DNA from: Cytospora piceicola
Lineage: Eukaryota; Ascomycota; Sordariomycetes; Diaporthales; Cytosporaceae
NCBI GenBank assembly: GCA_023375675.1
Contig: JALQBC010000006.1
Location: 620,001-684,000, forward strand
DNA: 64,000 nucleotides
Direction: 5' to 3'
Shown here: positions 30,857-61,000 of the stretch, one piece after another
Layout of the letters: each line of letters opens with the position of its first letter
Position numbering within the stretch: the stretch's first letter is position 1
Position numbers and translations under genes: made by a program
The notes under the pieces: model-generated
What the model saw: only the letters and a program-made list of their open reading frames with translations
Told to the model about the DNA's origin: nothing
Database searches by the model: none

Positions 30857-33800
30857 CTAACTGATGCGGGAACGCTTAGGCCCGCCTTGTTTTCCCTTAG
30901 GCGACTCGTTGTCCTGGCCATCATCATACTGCTGAAATGTCCTGACAACCCCCTTTCCCTTTCCCTTGGGGTCCTTTGCCTCCTGCGTCCCTTGGTCCTT
31001 TGCCTCCTGCGACCCTTGGTCCTCTATGCGCAGCGAAGTGGGCAGTCGAGGTTGCTCGTTATCGACACTGGAACCACTGTCCTCAAGAGCCTTCGCTTTA
31101 TCCCCATTGAGACCAATGGAATCTTCGGCCGAGGAAGTGTTATCAACAAGGCCTGTGGCTCCTTGGCCACCCAGGCGACGTCGAGCATCATCGCGGCTGA
31201 TATTAATTGCAATATTCATCGCGACGTCCTCATCCAAGTTACCAACGAATTCTTGCCACAGGTCCGAATCACGCTGCTCACCGGACCCCGCAGACTTCGC
31301 GCGGCGGGAGCTAGGCCCAGCTACAGCCTCGCCGCCGCCTCGTGCGCGGGCAAACGCACTCTTGCGGCTGAGATGGGGGAGGTTCGGGATAAGCGGGTTG
31401 CCACACCTCTCGACAGGCTCTGCAAACGTCACGCGGCGGGAGCTAGGCCCAGCCACAGCCTCGTCGCCGCCTCGTGCGCGGGCAAATGCGCTCTCGCGGC
31501 TGAGACGGGGGAGATTCGGCATAGGCGGGTTGCTGCGTCTCTCGCCGGGCTCTGCAAGCGTTACGCGACGAGAGCTAGGCCCAGCCACAGCCTCGTCCCC
31601 GCCAGCGCCGGCGCCTCGGGCCCGGGCAAACGCGCTCTCGCGGCTGAGACGCGGGAAAGTCTGCATGAACGGGTTGCTGTGAGGCGCGGACGGGCGGCGC
31701 GCCCGGGGGAGGGCAGGACTGCTGCTGTCCTGCGGGGCTGAGGGCCTGGCCTCGCCGGCCTGTGCCTCCTCAGCGTCCTCAGCGTCCTCAGCGTCCTCAG
31801 CCTCGGCCCCGCAGTCCTCGACGACGACGGGCAGGTGCCGGGAGGAGCCGAGGCGTGTGGACTCGCCCGTGCTGGAGATATTCTCGGCGCTGGACCTGCG
31901 CCTGTTGGCAGGGGTGGGGTGTCCTGGGTTCTGAGGTCTGGGGTGGTCCCAGTTCGCTTGCATGGCTGTCCCGAGGTCGTCTTCGATGCTGAGGGATCTG
32001 GGATCCCTGAGATGCAGGGCGGGGGGTCTTTGTAATGCTGTGCTGGAGTGGGACTGGGACTGGAACTCCATCATGCTCTCGCGTATTGCCGCCGCTGTGG
32101 CCTCCTTTTCGTCGTAAGTGCCCATGAATTCCCGATAATTGCTGTCCTCGTACTTCAGCCATTTGGCATGCTTATGATCACCATCGTCATCATTATCTTC
32201 ATCACCATCATCGTCATCATCATCGTCGTCGCCGAGGTCGATGATAGAACTAGGCTCCGGCAGGCGCTGAACACCGTCCACTTCCTCCAGGTGCTTGCGG
32301 ATCTGCTTCATTATGGCCTTGACGACGACAGGCGGGAACGCGTTCCCGATTTGCTTCTTGATGTAATTCGAGCGGAACCTGAAATCACTGGGGAACCCCT
32401 GCAGCGCGGCGAACTCGGCCAGGGTGAGGTCCCGGCTGCCGGACCAGTGGTAGCACTGGCCCCCGGACGTGGTGATGGTCCGCTCGAGCGGCCTGGTGCC
32501 GTCCCAGGGCGGGCGGTCGACGGCCCGGGCCTCCTGGACGCCGTGCAGGTTCACCCCCGGGACGAGGGGGCCGCAGGCCTGCACGGCCGACACCAGCGGC
32601 TTCTGCTGCTGGCCGCCGCCGCCGACCGCGGGCGCCCTGCTGTGCGTGGGCCGGGGCCAGTCGGGGAGCGGCTCGCCCGGGGCGGCGCCGACCATGAAGA
32701 GCCGCTTGCGCGTCTGGGGGAGGCCGAACTCGACGAGGTGGAGGACCTTCCACTTGACCGAGAAGCCGTGGCGGGTGAAGCCCTGGATGAAGGCGTTGAG
32801 GTGAAACGAGTGCCGGTCCTGGGAGAGGCCGAAGGTCTGCTCGACTGTGAAGAGGCGGGGGCGGAAGATGAGGATGATAGGCTCGCAAGAGAAGAGGGTC
32901 GTTATGTTAGCTATGTCGTTCTTGCCGGCGCAGGTGTGTGCTGGCGAGTAAAACTGGCATGGGGGAGACATGTGCACGAAGTCGACCGGCTCTGGGGGGT
33001 CGACCGTCAGGTCTGTGTTGTTGTTATTCTCCTGGATAAACTCGTGGACATCTTTCTCGTGAAGATCTGTGTCGGGGAAATTCTCACGGTATGTCTCGCA
33101 GCAGCGTGACCAGTGGTCACACGCGGTCAGGACCTTGAAGCCGGCCATCTCGGCGCCTTTGGAGAAACCGCCGGCGCCGCAGAAGAAATCAACAACCGAG
33201 AATTTCTGTCCAGGGAGTATCTTCGTCGTCGGCCCGGCTTCTGAGATGGGCTCAGCCTTGGCATTTTCTCTCCTCGGGAGGTAGGAACCACCGGGCACCT
33301 TCTCGTGATTTCTTCTCCACTTTGTGAGGCGGTCGTGGTCCGAGGCGCGGTGTCGATCTTTCACCACGTCGGCCTCGCCGTAGTGCCTCAGCTCTTCCCC
33401 GTCAACAGCACGACCACGGCGACGGTATCTGGCATCAGGGTACTTCCTGGTCATGACCCAGCGGCACGTCAGCGGGGCCTTGGCCTCCCTGTCTGCCCTG
33501 GTCTGGTAGCTGACGGGGTCGAACCGGCATTCGGGAAACAGCTTGTTGGTCTTGTGAAGAATGCGGACCGCCTTTATGGCACCTAGGGGAACCTCGAAGA
33601 GCGCCTGGATGTCGATGCTGCGGTCGTCGTTTGTGTCAATCTCGAGGAGCGCACACACTTCGTTCTTGCGAGGATCAATACGCCCGTCCAGGTTCCTCGT
33701 CCTCGCGTAGGGAAACCCCCGGACAAAGTCTTGACCCTTGTCGTTCGCGTTCTTTTGATAATAGATCTGGGCAACCTCCAAGAACTCCGCCTGGTATCGA

Positions 33801-34273
33801 CCGACCTCAATGGGCTCCTTCAGCTCCACGAATTGCATGGTCTTGAACTCGAGTTCGGGGGTAGAGGCATATGTGGCAAGGTAGTGTGTCCCGCAACGGC
33901 ATGGGTTTCGAATCCGCTTCTTCCAGTGTTTGCAGTGGCCGGTGCCGACGGAGACCTTCGCGCGCTCGGGTTCGGGCTCGGGTTCGGGCTCGGGCTCGGG
34001 GTCGTCTTCGGTGAGGTCGATTGCCTCGATGGCTTCGTTTTCCTTGTCATAGTTGGCTTCCTCCTCCGCCCAAGGGTCCTCCGACAAGTCCTCGTCGTCT
34101 TCTTCGACCTTGATCGGTGGCGCTGGGAGCGCATCACACTGACGGACGCGGTCGAGGAGGTCTTGAGCCTGCGCGCCGACTTCAGACTGGGGAACGTCTA
34201 TGTCGTCCTCGATGATGATGGGCTGCGCGTGCGAGCCCTCGGACGCACCCTCGAGAAGGTTGGCTTCAGGCAT
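30857..34273 (-). CDS. rid: RID-type DNA cytosine-5 methyltransferase (RIP-defective homologue)
   Basis: A single exon encodes 1138 residues. The N-terminal ~130 residues are acidic. A BAH-like region (~140-270) precedes the methyltransferase core: motif I VVDFFCGAGGFSKG near residue 360, motif IV SPPCQFYSPAHT near 440, and motif VI TVEQTFGL near 477. Motif VIII QTRKRLFMVG and motif X YIKKQIGNAFPP (near 645) follow. In motif VI the usual ENV is EQT, the mark of the fungal Masc1/RID class needed for repeat-induced point mutation and MIP. The long C-terminal tail (~490 residues, low-complexity) exceeds the ~845-residue Neurospora RID and holds three ~43-residue repeats. Upstream on this strand a branch-like CTGAC and acceptor tttccag (34346) suggest a 5'-UTR intron; 34273 is then the first ATG. 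Tail-to-tail with the esterase gene, 159 bp apart. Confidence 0.9.
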   Translation of the reverse strand: MPEANLLEGASEGSHAQPIIIEDDIDVPQSEVGAQAQDLLDRVRQCDALPAPPIKVEEDDEDLSEDPWAEEEANYDKENEAIEAIDLTEDDPEPEPEPEPEPERAKVSVGTGHCKHWKKRIRNPCRCGTHYLATYASTPELEFKTMQFVELKEPIEVGRYQAEFLEVAQIYYQKNANDKGQDFVRGFPYARTRNLDGRIDPRKNEVCALLEIDTNDDRSIDIQALFEVPLGAIKAVRILHKTNKLFPECRFDPVSYQTRADREAKAPLTCRWVMTRKYPDARYRRRGRAVDGEELRHYGEADVVKDRHRASDHDRLTKWRRNHEKVPGGSYLPRRENAKAEPISEAGPTTKILPGQKFSVVDFFCGAGGFSKGAEMAGFKVLTACDHWSRCCETYRENFPDTDLHEKDVHEFIQENNNNTDLTVDPPEPVDFVHMSPPCQFYSPAHTCAGKNDIANITTLFSCEPIILIFRPRLFTVEQTFGLSQDRHSFHLNAFIQGFTRHGFSVKWKVLHLVEFGLPQTRKRLFMVGAAPGEPLPDWPRPTHSRAPAVGGGGQQQKPLVSAVQACGPLVPGVNLHGVQEARAVDRPPWDGTRPLERTITTSGGQCYHWSGSRDLTLAEFAALQGFPSDFRFRSNYIKKQIGNAFPPVVVKAIMKQIRKHLEEVDGVQRLPEPSSIIDLGDDDDDDDDGDEDNDDDGDHKHAKWLKYEDSNYREFMGTYDEKEATAAAIRESMMEFQSQSHSSTALQRPPALHLRDPRSLSIEDDLGTAMQANWDHPRPQNPGHPTPANRRRSSAENISSTGESTRLGSSRHLPVVVEDCGAEAEDAEDAEDAEEAQAGEARPSAPQDSSSPALPRARRPSAPHSNPFMQTFPRLSRESAFARARGAGAGGDEAVAGPSSRRVTLAEPGERRSNPPMPNLPRLSRESAFARARGGDEAVAGPSSRRVTFAEPVERCGNPLIPNLPHLSRKSAFARARGGGEAVAGPSSRRAKSAGSGEQRDSDLWQEFVGNLDEDVAMNIAINISRDDARRRLGGQGATGLVDNTSSAEDSIGLNGDKAKALEDSGSSVDNEQPRLPTSLRIEDQGSQEAKDQGTQEAKDPKGKGKGVVRTFQQYDDGQDNESPKGKQGGPKRSRIS
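31290..31680 (-). repeat. Three ~130-145-bp in-frame repeats in RID C-terminal tail
   Basis: Three consecutive copies encode SAFARARG followed by EAVAGPSSRR blocks, each preceded by PRLSRES or PHLSRKS. They differ by point changes and small indels. They lie outside the catalytic core in a predicted disordered region. Confidence 0.85.
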
Positions 34274-55873: not shown

Positions 55874-57306
55874 AATAGTAGCTATAACGTATATATTATA
55901 TTAAAGGTGATTAATTATTAATTAACTTTACTAGCACGCGATTAACTAAAGCCGTTTAGCGGTTTAGTAAGAGTAATACTATCGTAATTACTAGAGCCGT
56001 TAAGCAGGCTAGTTAAAGGCGAAATATTAACTAATTAACGCGATAAACGTATCGTAATTAACGCGATACCTTTATATTAAGCTAAGTTATAAAGTATAAC
56101 CTTTCGCGAATATTTATAAACAGATAAGCGCTTACGAATTATATCGACTTCTCGATACTAACCTATCTCTATATATCGGCTATACTCGAGTAACTAATAG
56201 GGAAATATTGTTTCTACCTCCCTTAAGTAAACCTTTAGGTTAAGACCTATTACTACTTAAGCTAAAGGATATAATAGAAGCTAACGATAATTCGAACGTA
56301 AATATCGAGAACGACTTTCTTTACCGACTAGATATAGCTTTTAGAATACCTAACGCCTTTCGCGATAGTCTTATAGCTAGCCGTACGATAGAACCTAAAG
56401 ATTCCGATATTCTTTAAAATCTTAAAAATAATTTATATACTTAGAAGTAGATTAAAAAGTATTTAACTAACCTGCCTAAGCAAATTAGTTAATTAACTTT
56501 AGTTTAAAGGGATTAAAATCGACGCCTCGAAAAGATAATATTAATAATCGGTTAATTATTAGAATACTTACGACGTTAGTTAAACGATATTCCTAAAAAC
56601 GCTTTAATAAATATAGCTAGGGATATTCGAAATAATCGATTAGGAAGCGGTTTCGGATAAGATCCTTTTATAAAGTAAAACGCTCTTTTTCGCTTTTAAG
56701 AAAACGCCTTTCCTTAAAATAATCGTCCGGCGGTGTTTAGCTTAAAAGGTAAAGGTAAAGAAGATCTATATAGATCCGATAATAACGATAATAGTAATAA
56801 CCCTCGACGTCCGCGTTACTTAAGAGATCTTTATAGTCTCTTACGTAATCGTAATCGTAATTGTAATCGCGATTATAGTCGTCGCTCTTTAATATATAAC
56901 ACTTTTTATAGCTTTTTTACTTAAAAAGGTACTCGTAAGCTAAAGCGAGAGGAAGTTAATGTCTTTAACCTTAAGTATAACAACCTTTATAATATAAGAG
57001 TTATTACTATTAGTAAGGATATTATTTTTATAAATGTCTAGAGTTTTTAAGATTATTTAAACACCTTCTTTAATAACAAAGCTACTCGGAGTAATATATA
57101 AGGTTAAATTATAGAAATGTTCTTTACTTTACTTTAAGGTTTAGTAGTAGCCTAGTAGACGAATAAGCTTACTTAATAAGCTTATCGATAATTTTATTAA
57201 GATAGATTTAAAGCTATTATAAAAGCTTTAGAATTACGCTTCTTAATAAAACCTGTATATATAACTCGTAAGTTTTATAAGGTAAGTTATCGCTTTAAAG
57301 ATCTCG

Positions 57307-58007
57307 CTAATAATCAGAGTTATAACTGTATTTTTATATTTTGTATTTGTATTTTTAAAAATACAAAAATACATGTATTTTGTATTTGTATTTTTAGACC
57401 TTTGTATTTGTATTTGTATTTATTTCTAAACCTTTGTATTTTATATTTTTGTATTTCTAATACAAAAATACAAAATACACTATATAAAATAATAAAGAAC
57501 TATATAAAGGTATAAATAACTATTATATTATTAAGTATTATAGTTATTATTATAAAAGCTCTTAAAGTATATTAATATCTATTTTATTTAATTTTATATT
57601 TATATTTATATAAGTGTATATTTTTGTATTTTTGTATTTTTATATTAGAAATATAAAATACAAATACAAAAATACAAAATACATATTTATATTTGTATTT
57701 ATTTTGTATTTCTGTATTAGAAATATAAAAATACAAAATAACTTTAAGTTTTTTAAAATATTTTATATACTAAATACTTATATTTACAGGTTAATAGTAC
57801 TAGTATAAGTTATATTAATAATAATAATATTATATATTTACTTTTATATTACTTGTATTTTTATATTAGAAATACAAAAATACAAAATAAATACAAATAC
57901 AAATACGTATTTGTATTTGTATTTATTTCCGACCCTCTGTATTTGTATTTTTGTATTTTGTATTTATATTTTTGTATTTGCTTATATTTCACAACTCTGC
58001 TAATAAT
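57307..58007. repeat. 8-bp target duplication around hAT-like insertion
   Basis: CTAATAAT occurs at 57307-57314 and again at 58000-58007, exactly flanking the insertion. An 8-bp duplication is the hallmark of hAT transposition. Confidence 0.85.
57315..57999. mobile_element. Non-autonomous hAT-like element (MITE), nested in LTR element
   Basis: 685 bp. The left end reads CAGAGTTATAAC; the right end, inverted, reads CAGAGTTGTGAA, the CAGNGTTG-type terminus of hAT elements. It is flanked by a perfect 8-bp target duplication. The interior has no coding capacity and consists largely of TTTGTATTTG/AAATACAAA units in both orientations, making several long imperfect hairpins. Unlike the surrounding DNA it is rich in TpG and CpA. 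It interrupts the gag-proximal region of the retrotransposon. Confidence 0.85.
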
Positions 58008-61000
58008 AAATATTCTTTATATAAGTTTATTTAGAAGATACTTCGATATACTTATATTATAGGTATTTTAAACTATATTAATATAAACTAGTCTGAAGTT
58101 ATAGTTAATATTTAGTTTAGTATAAATTTAGAAGTTTATATTTACCTTCCGGCTTTTTATAAAAAGAGCACCTTAAAGTAATATATATAAACTGTTAAAA
58201 AGTCTAAAAGTATTTTATTAGTAGCTGCTAATTAACGGTATCTTTATTATCGATTATTAGTAAAGTTATCTCGTTTTAAAGGTTGTTATAATTCTCGCTA
58301 TACTATAGATAAGTCTAGTCGAAATAATAATTATCGTCGAGGTAATCGTTTTTAGGCGTTATTTTATAGCAACTACTTTTATAATAATTATCGTAGCTAT
58401 TATAATAAAGACCGAAGAAACTATCGCGATAAAGACTGTAATAACCGACGAGACTATCGCGATAAAAATAGAGACTATAATAATCGGAAGGATAAATATA
58501 AAAATAAGTATAAAGATAAATATAAGTTTAACGATAAAAACTATAATAAAGATAAAAAAGTTTATTATAAAGATAAAAAGAAAGAAGATCGAGCTTATAA
58601 TATTATATTAGATAAGGAAGCTAATAATAAGTAATTAGATAACGGTTTACTGCCTTTATCTTCGATATTTTTATAAGGCTTTAAGTTATATATTGTTATA
58701 GATAATTAAAACGCTTATTTTATACGTCGCACTTATATCTACTATAACGTTAAATTCCCTTTACATAATACCTTTTTTAAGTATATCTCTGTTTATAATA
58801 AACGTAATTTTAATATAAATTTTCGTAAGGAAGTTAAAAGACGTATATATAAAGCTGACTTTTCCCGACTGTCTTACTATATTAAGAATTAGTATTAACT
58901 AAAAGATATTATAGTTATTTAAGCTATTAATAATAAGAATTTATTAGCTTTAAGCGGCTACCGATATATATATATTACTGTTTAATTTACTTTAAATAAT
59001 AAAGATCTAGTACTATATGTAGATATAGGTACTAAAAAGAATTTAGTTAATTTTAAGTAACTAAATAATAATTTTCCGGAATATAAAATCTTTTCTCTTT
59101 TTTAAGCCGATTTTATATAAAGAGTTAAAGGTAAACTTATATACTTAAAATAAAAAGCTCGATAAACCTTCTTTACCTTAAGACGTAGGAGTAATAGTAT
59201 TTTAGCTATTATATAAGAGAAAGTTAAGGCTTAGATTATTAATAGTTTAGATATAGGCTATTTATTAGGTAATAATTAGCTATATCTTTATAAAGTCTAT
59301 ATCGATTATAATAAATACGTTATTTAATTTCCTAATAATAACTTTATAATTTCGTTTATAGTAAAGAAGTAAGCTAAAAAGCCTGTTATATATAAGGTTT
59401 ATATTACTTAAAAGTATATAATTTAACCGCGTTAATTAATTTAGGTTTTAGTAGTATATATAAACCTTCTTAAAAGACGATTATTTATATTTACCGCTTA
59501 GTATCCTACTGCTTTAAATACTATTATAGATATCGATACTTTATATATTTATAAGTTATATAATACTTCTATAGAACTAGTTTTTATTCCGAAAAGTATT
59601 TATTTTAATATTATTACCGAATATAAAAACGGTACTTACTTTATAGCTAATTAAACTAGTTTTATATAGGCAGTTATATATACTTATATAATAAGTAGTA
59701 TATCTTCTATCGCTAAGCCGAGCTTAGATATACTCGGAACTTATAACGTTAACCTAAAGCTAACTAATAACCTTAGTATTACTAATATAGTCTATATAAG
59801 CTTTAAGTTTAACTTTACCCCTTATATATTAGAAACGGCGTAAGGATTTATAAAGATAAAGTTATTAAACGTTTCTTTTTCAGAACCGATACCTTATACA
59901 GATACCGTATATATAGTTATTTTTAAAATATATTATATAGAATAGTAAGATTAGCCTATTACTAATTTTAATTTAAAAGATAAACCTTATATAAAAAAGA
60001 TTTTAAGTTTATTCGGTATTAAAACGCCTCCCGATACTCCGATAATTCGAATAATATATAATATATATATTAATACTATAGATAAATTTAAAGCCTTTAA
60101 GCTTTAAAAAGTTTATAAAACCTTTACTATTATATAAGAGGATACTAGCTTTATCGATATACCCGAAGACTAAATAATAAAAGTTCCTTTTATTAAAGGC
60201 TAATAAAACGCTAAACTTAATTATTATAAATACTTAGTATTTTATAAAAATAAGAAACTTTTTAATAAATAGTTTAATAAACTTTATAAGTAAGGTAAGA
60301 TAAAGTATATAGATAACGTATACCTTTTTACTTTACCTGTTTTTATAATTTAAAGAATAGTACGTAATTAAGAAAAAGGTCGTATTATAATCGATCTCTG
60401 TCTTTTAAATAAATAGGCTATTCCTAATAGCTACCTTTTACCTTTATAGTTAGACGTAGTTAAAACTATCCGAGGTAAGTGTTAAATTATAATTATCGAT
60501 ATTATACGTTTCTTTTACTAATTACTCGTTTATCTAAACTATCGAAATCGTTTTACTTATATTAGCTATCGAAGTTTTAAGCGATTTAAAGTCGTTTTTA
60601 TAAGCTTTCGAAATTCTTCGTCTTATACTTAACGCTTTATAGATAGGTTACTCCGAGATTATAAAACGTATTATTACGTTTTTATTAACGATATTATTAT
60701 CTTTTTAAACTTTTTTAAAGATTATTTATATTACTTAGAAACTGTATTTAAAGTATTTTAAGACTATAGAGTATTTATTTTAGCCGATAAATTATATATT
60801 AGATTTTAGTTAGTTAAACTTTTTAGTTTTTATATTAACGCTTTAAGTCTTTCTATTACTAAGGAGCGTATTTAAGGTTTCTGTAACCTTAAGTTTCTAC
60901 GAACTCTTAAAGCCTTAAAAACCTATCTCGGTATAATAGGTTTTTTAAGGCCTATAATTCCCTACTACGCTTAAATTACCGACTTTCTTTAAAAGCGTAA

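What the first reader, a model, noticed from the sequence alone, without database searches (positions are those of the whole stretch)
57315..57999. hAT-like MITE that keeps TpG/CpA inside RIP-stripped DNA
The 685-bp element has hAT termini and an 8-bp duplication. Its body is built almost wholly of TTTGTATTTG-type units in both orientations. Surrounding DNA has lost CpA/TpG, yet this element is dense in them. Either it inserted after RIP acted, or it evades RIP (small size, low copy, or unusual structure). The low-complexity hairpin core looks undescribed.
Basis: partly seen in the sequence, partly recalled or inferred. Interest (0 to 1): 0.75.

Follow-up and report, generated by a model that had tools for sequence, protein, structure and literature searches.

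The report
Young hAT-derived MITE, partly RIP-mutated
This is a short non-coding jumping gene of a tree-canker fungus that most likely landed recently in DNA already eroded by the fungus's repeat-mutating defence; its sister copies run from nearly intact to fully eroded, so it is not immune to that defence.

Summary
The observation mostly holds. Window 57315-57999 is a 685-bp element with CAGAGTTGTGA-type termini and a perfect 8-bp duplication (CTAATAAT). Its (CpA+TpG)/(ApC+GpT) is 0.66, against 0.18 and 0.16 in the 500 bp either side. It belongs to a two-size family (about 685 and 492 bp) in a Cytospora genome. A 9,179-bp RIP-broken element (contig C21) with the same termini, its own 8-bp duplication, MITE-like ends and a hAT dimerisation domain ties the family to hAT. 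Substitutions among copies are mostly C-to-T, 68-69% of them at CpA. Over 31 copies the fraction of CpA/TpG kept runs from 56/57 to 0/34; this copy lacks 14 of 58. After C21 and a sister copy (C46) diverged, C21 lost 27 of 35 such sites in its unit-rich end and 89 of 138 in its interior, so the units are not protected. The family is not low-copy, and units cover about 43% of the element, not nearly all. They are probably subterminal transposase-binding repeats (inferred). Slower RIP on short copies is not excluded, and is already a published idea. Ordinary in kind.

The parts
56864..58507 (.). Host repeat flanking the insertion (stretch compared with its paralogs, element excluded), CpA/TpG-poor
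   Evidence: Five fetched paralogs (C6, C70, C5, C13, C66) align across the site without the element; observed/expected CpA+TpG 0.09-0.17 in the six copies
57307..57314 (.). Target-site duplication, left copy, CTAATAAT
57315..57325 (+). Left terminal inverted repeat, CAGAGTTATAA (family form CAGAGTTGTGA, both TpG changed to TpA here)
57326..57474 (.). Left subterminal block of TTTGTATTT / AAATACAAA units
   Evidence: matches the left end of the long C21 element
57475..57591 (.). Unit-free stretch 1
57592..57737 (.). Internal block of units in both orientations
57738..57869 (.). Unit-free stretch 2; the best-conserved match to the right end of the long elements runs through it
57870..57988 (.). 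Right subterminal block of units, with a 44-bp perfect self-complementary stretch at about 57885-57928
   Evidence: element positions 571-614 match their own reverse complement at 100%
57989..57999 (-). Right terminal inverted repeat, TCACAACTCTG
58000..58007 (.). Target-site duplication, right copy, CTAATAAT

Best explanation
It is a non-autonomous, internally deleted relative of a hAT transposon (a MITE) in a Cytospora species. Shown: 8-bp duplications, matching termini, no long reading frame, and a 9.2-kb element with the same termini, MITE-like ends and a broken hAT transposase. Inferred: the TTTGTATTT units are subterminal repeats bound by that family's transposase, so the MITE was moved in trans. 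Shown: the host repeat's paralogs lack the insertion and are equally RIPped. Most likely: this copy arrived after most of the RIP of that repeat, which is why it still holds CpA/TpG. RIP acts on this family and in time strips copies completely; part of this copy's 14 lost sites may have been inherited from its source copy.
For: Perfect 8-bp duplication and termini. Substitutions against the majority: C>T/G>A are 157 of 232 in 10 long copies and 99 of 136 in 8 of the 492-class copies; 107 of 157 and 68 of 99 of these are at CpA. Kept CpA/TpG over 31 copies runs from 56/57 to 0/34, 8 copies under 20%, and falls with transversions (Spearman -0.75; -0.71, n = 27, after leaving out four of five copies that are one duplicated insertion). 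L027, with its own duplication (1 mismatch), kept 6 of 46. C21:586013-595191 has the same termini, CTAATAAA on both sides (read by eye), PF05699 inside and MITE-like ends (76% and 79%). Domain piece: Dimer_Tnp_hAT 1e-13, Hermes 1.4e-9. C21 lost 27/35 sites in the unit end and 89/138 in the interior after diverging from C46 (Fisher p = 0.23). Uninterrupted site in five paralogs.
Against: Pairwise transversions of the MITE copies (4-7.5 per kb) are not clearly fewer than those of the host repeat (3-23 per kb), although the host is far more eroded; a purely younger age is therefore not shown by that clock. Lost sites are shared between copies more than independent hits predict, so losses are not all private to this insertion. 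The middle of the MITE aligns poorly with the long element (transversions 103-126 per kb over whole ends), so the direct progenitor is not in hand. Four of five transposase pieces had no Pfam match.
Confidence: 0.8

Rival explanations
1. Short copies (492-685 bp) lie near the length limit of RIP's homology search, so they are detected rarely and eroded slowly; strong erosion of some copies comes from lying inside larger RIPped repeats.
For: MITEs less affected by RIP are reported for Zymoseptoria (PMC9970103 and PMC8759822, passages); a threshold of about 400 bp is quoted in PMC4522978 (passage). Similar transversion counts but much lighter erosion than the host repeat. The five copies with at most 2 kept sites L024, L025, L026, L029 and L033 are one insertion duplicated with its host repeat. 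All 31 table copies lie in CpA-poor flanks (observed/expected at most 0.36), so detection in unique DNA could not be tested.
Against: Copies with no shared adjacent flank are also heavily eroded: L035 0/31, L027 6/46, L022 8/43, L030 6/25, L019 9/35, though L022, L030 and L035 lie next to TAAG/CTTA-rich repeats. Erosion shows no gradient from the ends inward (Spearman 0.06 and -0.10), as spill-over from flanks might give. L009 lost 37 of 57 sites with about one transversion.
Confidence: 0.25
2. The unit-rich low-complexity sequence itself resists RIP.
For: Ends of two long elements are well kept beside eroded interiors: C46 right end 27 of 39 sites, C40 left end 22 of 22.
Against: The same ends in C21 (2/29 and 6/41 kept) and C4 (1/24 kept) are stripped; C21 lost unit-end sites at least as readily as interior sites; old MITE copies lose nearly all.
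Confidence: 0.05
3. It is not a mobile element but a local low-complexity or satellite expansion.
For: GC 14% and dense short repeats.
Against: Discrete full-length copies at 93-97%, separate 8-bp duplications and empty sites.
Confidence: 0.01

Closest known systems
hAT superfamily transposons with subterminal repeats (Hermes; Ac and Tol2 as described in the Hermes paper PMC10368747, passages)
   Same: 8-bp duplications, short terminal inverted repeats, many short motifs near both ends in both orientations, C-terminal hAT dimerisation domain in the related long element
   Different: The unit (TTTGTATTT) is not the Hermes motif (AAGT in that paper); units extend into the middle; no binding was tested; the transposase is broken
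Fungal MITEs under RIP (Zymoseptoria tritici; PMC9970103, PMC8759822 and PMC4522978, passages)
   Same: Short non-coding elements with terminal inverted repeats, less RIPped than long neighbours
   Different: Those MITEs lie mostly outside large RIP-affected regions and ten families there showed no CpA bias; these lie in RIPped DNA and show a clear CpA bias down to complete loss
Repeat-induced point mutation (RIP)
   Same: C>T and G>A changes with CpA preference on both strands
   Different: CpT is hit too: 41 of 157 and 26 of 99 of the C>T/G>A changes

Membership tests
hAT superfamily | 8-bp target-site duplication | tested here: met
   18 terminus pairs passed a 2-mismatch filter, 16 identical; L007 adds an identical pair; uninterrupted single site in paralogs
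hAT superfamily | Short terminal inverted repeats of the CAGAG type (type recalled, not from a call) | tested here: met
   CAGAGTTGTGA-type at both ends
hAT superfamily | Transposase with hAT C-terminal dimerisation domain in a partner with the same ends | tested here: met
   PF05699 in C21 and C46, broken by stops; piece 1e-13, Hermes 1.4e-9
hAT superfamily | N-terminal BED zinc finger and catalytic core | tested here: inconclusive
   No Pfam match in four other pieces of the broken C46 frame
hAT superfamily | Subterminal repeats bound by the transposase | tested here: inconclusive
   Units present and shared with the long elements' ends; binding not testable here
MITE | Short, non-coding, multicopy derivative of a DNA transposon | tested here: met
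   685 bp; longest frame touching it 69 aa, low-complexity; 31 copies scored
RIP substrate | C>T transitions biased to CpA among copies, on both strands | tested here: met
   79 C>T and 78 G>A in long copies; CpA 107 of 157
RIP substrate | Dependence on the sexual cycle and on the RID methylase | not testable with these tools
   Needs crosses

The most novel reading that the evidence does not exclude
In this family RIP kills the coding interior while unit-bearing ends persist long enough to be moved in trans. The common ancestor of C21 and C46 seems to have had an eroded interior but an intact right end, and the C40 end, beside GC-rich DNA, keeps 22 of 22 sites above a CpA-poor body. RIP-dead elements would then go on spreading as non-autonomous ones, with the transposase-binding repeats as the part that must stay un-RIPped.
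Probability: 0.2. Interest if true: 0.45.

Novelty: new member of a known kind. Interest (0 to 1): 0.27.

Why it matters
It is a worked case in which an apparent RIP-resistant island is best read as a younger layer, and it supplies one family sampled at every stage of erosion. That series, with long elements sharing the same ends, could be used to measure how RIP depends on repeat length and sequence in a fungus outside the usual models.

Tried and rejected
Resistance by unit structure: rejected. Low copy number: rejected. Spill-over of RIP from the flanks as the only cause: no end-to-centre gradient, not fully excluded. Dating by transversions: not used to decide, because counts are small, C21 and C46 seem to share an already eroded ancestor and low-complexity alignment can inflate counts; as it stands it does not favour a younger MITE, and this is told as evidence against. 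The terminus motif alone is close to its control. A text search for the unit and terminus strings found 128 papers of which 10 were listed, none of the ten on fungal transposons by title; hAT with subterminal repeats, transposase binding and MITE found none; Cytospora with transposable elements and repeat-induced point mutation found two, one of them seen in passages (PMC9911072). So no description of this family was found, in that library only. Isolate presence/absence was not tested: the collections on hand hold no other fungal genomes.

Rows left out: of the 40 loci scored, 9 were not put in the 31-copy table: ends of long elements (L028, L031, L036, L039, L040) and short or partial pieces (L032, L034, L037, L038); their kept fractions run from 0/9 to 22/22. 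One search used 10 long and 8 of the 21 492-class copies. The pairwise host-repeat figures leave out L082, the most distant paralog. One search listed further short matches of the host repeat that were not fetched.

Full report
What is there. The element at 57315-57999 is real and its borders are exact: CAGAGTTATAA at the left, TCACAACTCTG at the right, CTAATAAT on both sides. It lies in the AT-rich end of the window (54-64 kb, GC 17-31% per kb). Inside, TpA/ApT is 1.20 and (CpA+TpG)/(ApC+GpT) 0.66; in the 500 bp left and right the values are 1.72 and 0.18, and 1.40 and 0.16. No other 685-bp window of the tract, of 319, exceeds a CpA+TpG observed/expected of 0.31; the element has 1.08. So the contrast is real. 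Of its 27 TpG, 24 lie in TGTATT, and of its 18 CpA, 13 lie in AAATACA: the retained dinucleotides are largely the units. Units cover 42-44% of the element, with two unit-free stretches. The strand folds well (z = -9.0, 20 shuffles), as expected from units in both orientations. It holds no long reading frame (longest touching it 69 aa).

Family. The genome search with the element returned copies over (nearly) the full length at 93-97%, one at 91% over 1-648, and a second class that shares positions 1-390. Aligned references show the 492-bp class as the 685-bp class without most of the block between two AATACGTATTT repeats. In the first 40 loci, 18 terminus pairs had duplications within 2 mismatches, 16 of them identical; L007 adds an identical pair. 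The genome is a Cytospora: the neighbouring XPF-type protein is 97% identical to Cytospora chrysosperma VSDG_05672 (best 120 of 1806 listed).

Relation to hAT. Ten PF05699 matches were found in the genome, each with 1 to 4 stops. One, at C21:594006-594194, lies inside a 9,179-bp stretch with the family's termini and CTAATAAA on both sides (read by eye from the two loci). The MITE's positions 1-350 match its left end (76%) and 116-685 its right end (79%); a copy on C46 that runs to the contig's end is 92% identical over 6.5 kb. The C46 domain piece matches Dimer_Tnp_hAT (1e-13) and Hermes (1.4e-9). Four other pieces of the broken frame gave no Pfam match. This makes it hAT by more than resemblance of termini. 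Part of the MITE aligns poorly with the long elements, so the exact progenitor is not in hand.

Insertion after RIP or escape from RIP. The flank is a repeat; in five fetched paralogs the aligned target is uninterrupted (CTAATAAT in four, CTATTAAT in one), and all six copies are about equally CpA-poor (observed/expected 0.09-0.17). Inside the MITE family, 157 of 232 substitutions against the majority among 10 long copies and 99 of 136 among 8 short ones are C>T/G>A; 107 of 157 and 68 of 99 of these are at CpA. Against a most-CpA reference this copy lacks 14 of 58 sites; the ten long copies lack from 1 to 37. Over 31 copies of both classes the kept fraction runs from 56/57 to 0/34, with 8 copies under 20%. 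It falls with transversions (Spearman -0.75). Five of the most eroded copies (L024, L025, L026, L029, L033) share flanks and are one insertion duplicated with its host repeat; with four of them removed the correlation is -0.71, n = 27. Among the 26 others, none of which passed my test for a duplicated insertion (L021 matched that group on one side only, at 76-78%), kept fractions still reach 0.00 (L035), 0.13 (L027) and 0.19 (L022). L022, L030 and L035 lie next to TAAG/CTTA-rich repeats, so L027 is the cleanest case. The family is therefore open to RIP, and this copy is a lightly eroded member. Lost sites are shared between copies more than independent hits predict (669 against a null maximum of 587, and 315 against 305): hot sites, or losses inherited from a source copy. 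So not all 14 losses need have happened after this insertion.

The long elements give the same answer. Since C21 and C46 diverged, C21 lost 27 of 35 CpA/TpG sites in the MITE-like right end and 89 of 138 in the interior (difference not significant, p = 0.23). The units give no protection. Yet two long elements have well-kept ends and eroded interiors (C46 right end 27/39 kept, profile; C40 left end 22/22 kept, profile, where simple-repeat arrays naturally lack CpA), while C21 and C4 ends are stripped. One account is that copies were mobilised in trans while their ends were intact although their interiors were already eroded; this is inference.

What remains open. Transversions do not show the MITE copies to be clearly younger than the host repeat (4-7.5 against 3-23 per kb), though they are far less eroded. 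That leaves room for slower RIP on short copies, an idea already in print for Zymoseptoria MITEs (PMC9970103, PMC8759822; passages). Erosion shows no gradient from the ends inward, so it does not look like spill-over from the flanks. All 31 table copies lie in CpA-poor flanks (at most 0.36), so direct detection in unique DNA could not be tested.

How it most likely works. Inferred from hAT biology: transposase from an intact relative bound the terminal repeats and the subterminal TTTGTATTT units, cut the element out and pasted it with an 8-bp duplication (Hermes needs about 220 terminal bp of both ends in cells and carries many subterminal motifs, PMC10368747, passages). RIP changes TTTGTATTT to TTTATATTT and so probably removes binding sites. 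With all ten transposase domains found in this assembly broken, the family is probably immobile in this strain unless a source was missed.

Verdict. A new member of a known kind: a hAT-derived MITE caught early in RIP erosion. Interest is modest; its use is as a graded series for measuring RIP.

Noticed in passing
window 30857-34273 (-): 1138-aa frame with a C-5 cytosine methylase domain (PF00145, 5e-43); relatives include one named 'putative rip defective' (Diaporthe ampelina, 56%) and Cytospora proteins at 58-62%, one of them VPNG_03600, two tags from the XPF neighbour VPNG_03602. It is thus RID-like, the methylase class tied to RIP. A second, more distant Cytospora relative (VPNG_01461, 40%) exists. 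Identity to the closest hit is 69%, against 97% for the XPF neighbour, so it seems to evolve fast.
   Followed up: partly
window 31300-31603: 132-bp unit repeated 2.3 times inside the frame of that methylase.
   Followed up: no
L024, L025, L026, L029, L033 (contigs C7, C18, C2, C15, C1): One MITE insertion duplicated within a TAAG-rich host repeat, 84-97% alike in the flanks compared.
   Followed up: partly
L036 and L083 (contig C40:1-2674): A longer element with the family's left end wholly un-RIPped (22 of 22 sites), next to GC-rich DNA, body running off the contig start; it holds two diverged copies of a frame beginning MDLFKEVT / MDVFNEVT and AGT/AAT-rich arrays.
   Followed up: partly
L017 (C53:177244-177735): Its 600-bp flanks have a higher CpA+TpG observed/expected (0.55) than those of the other 17 copies in that table.
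   Followed up: no
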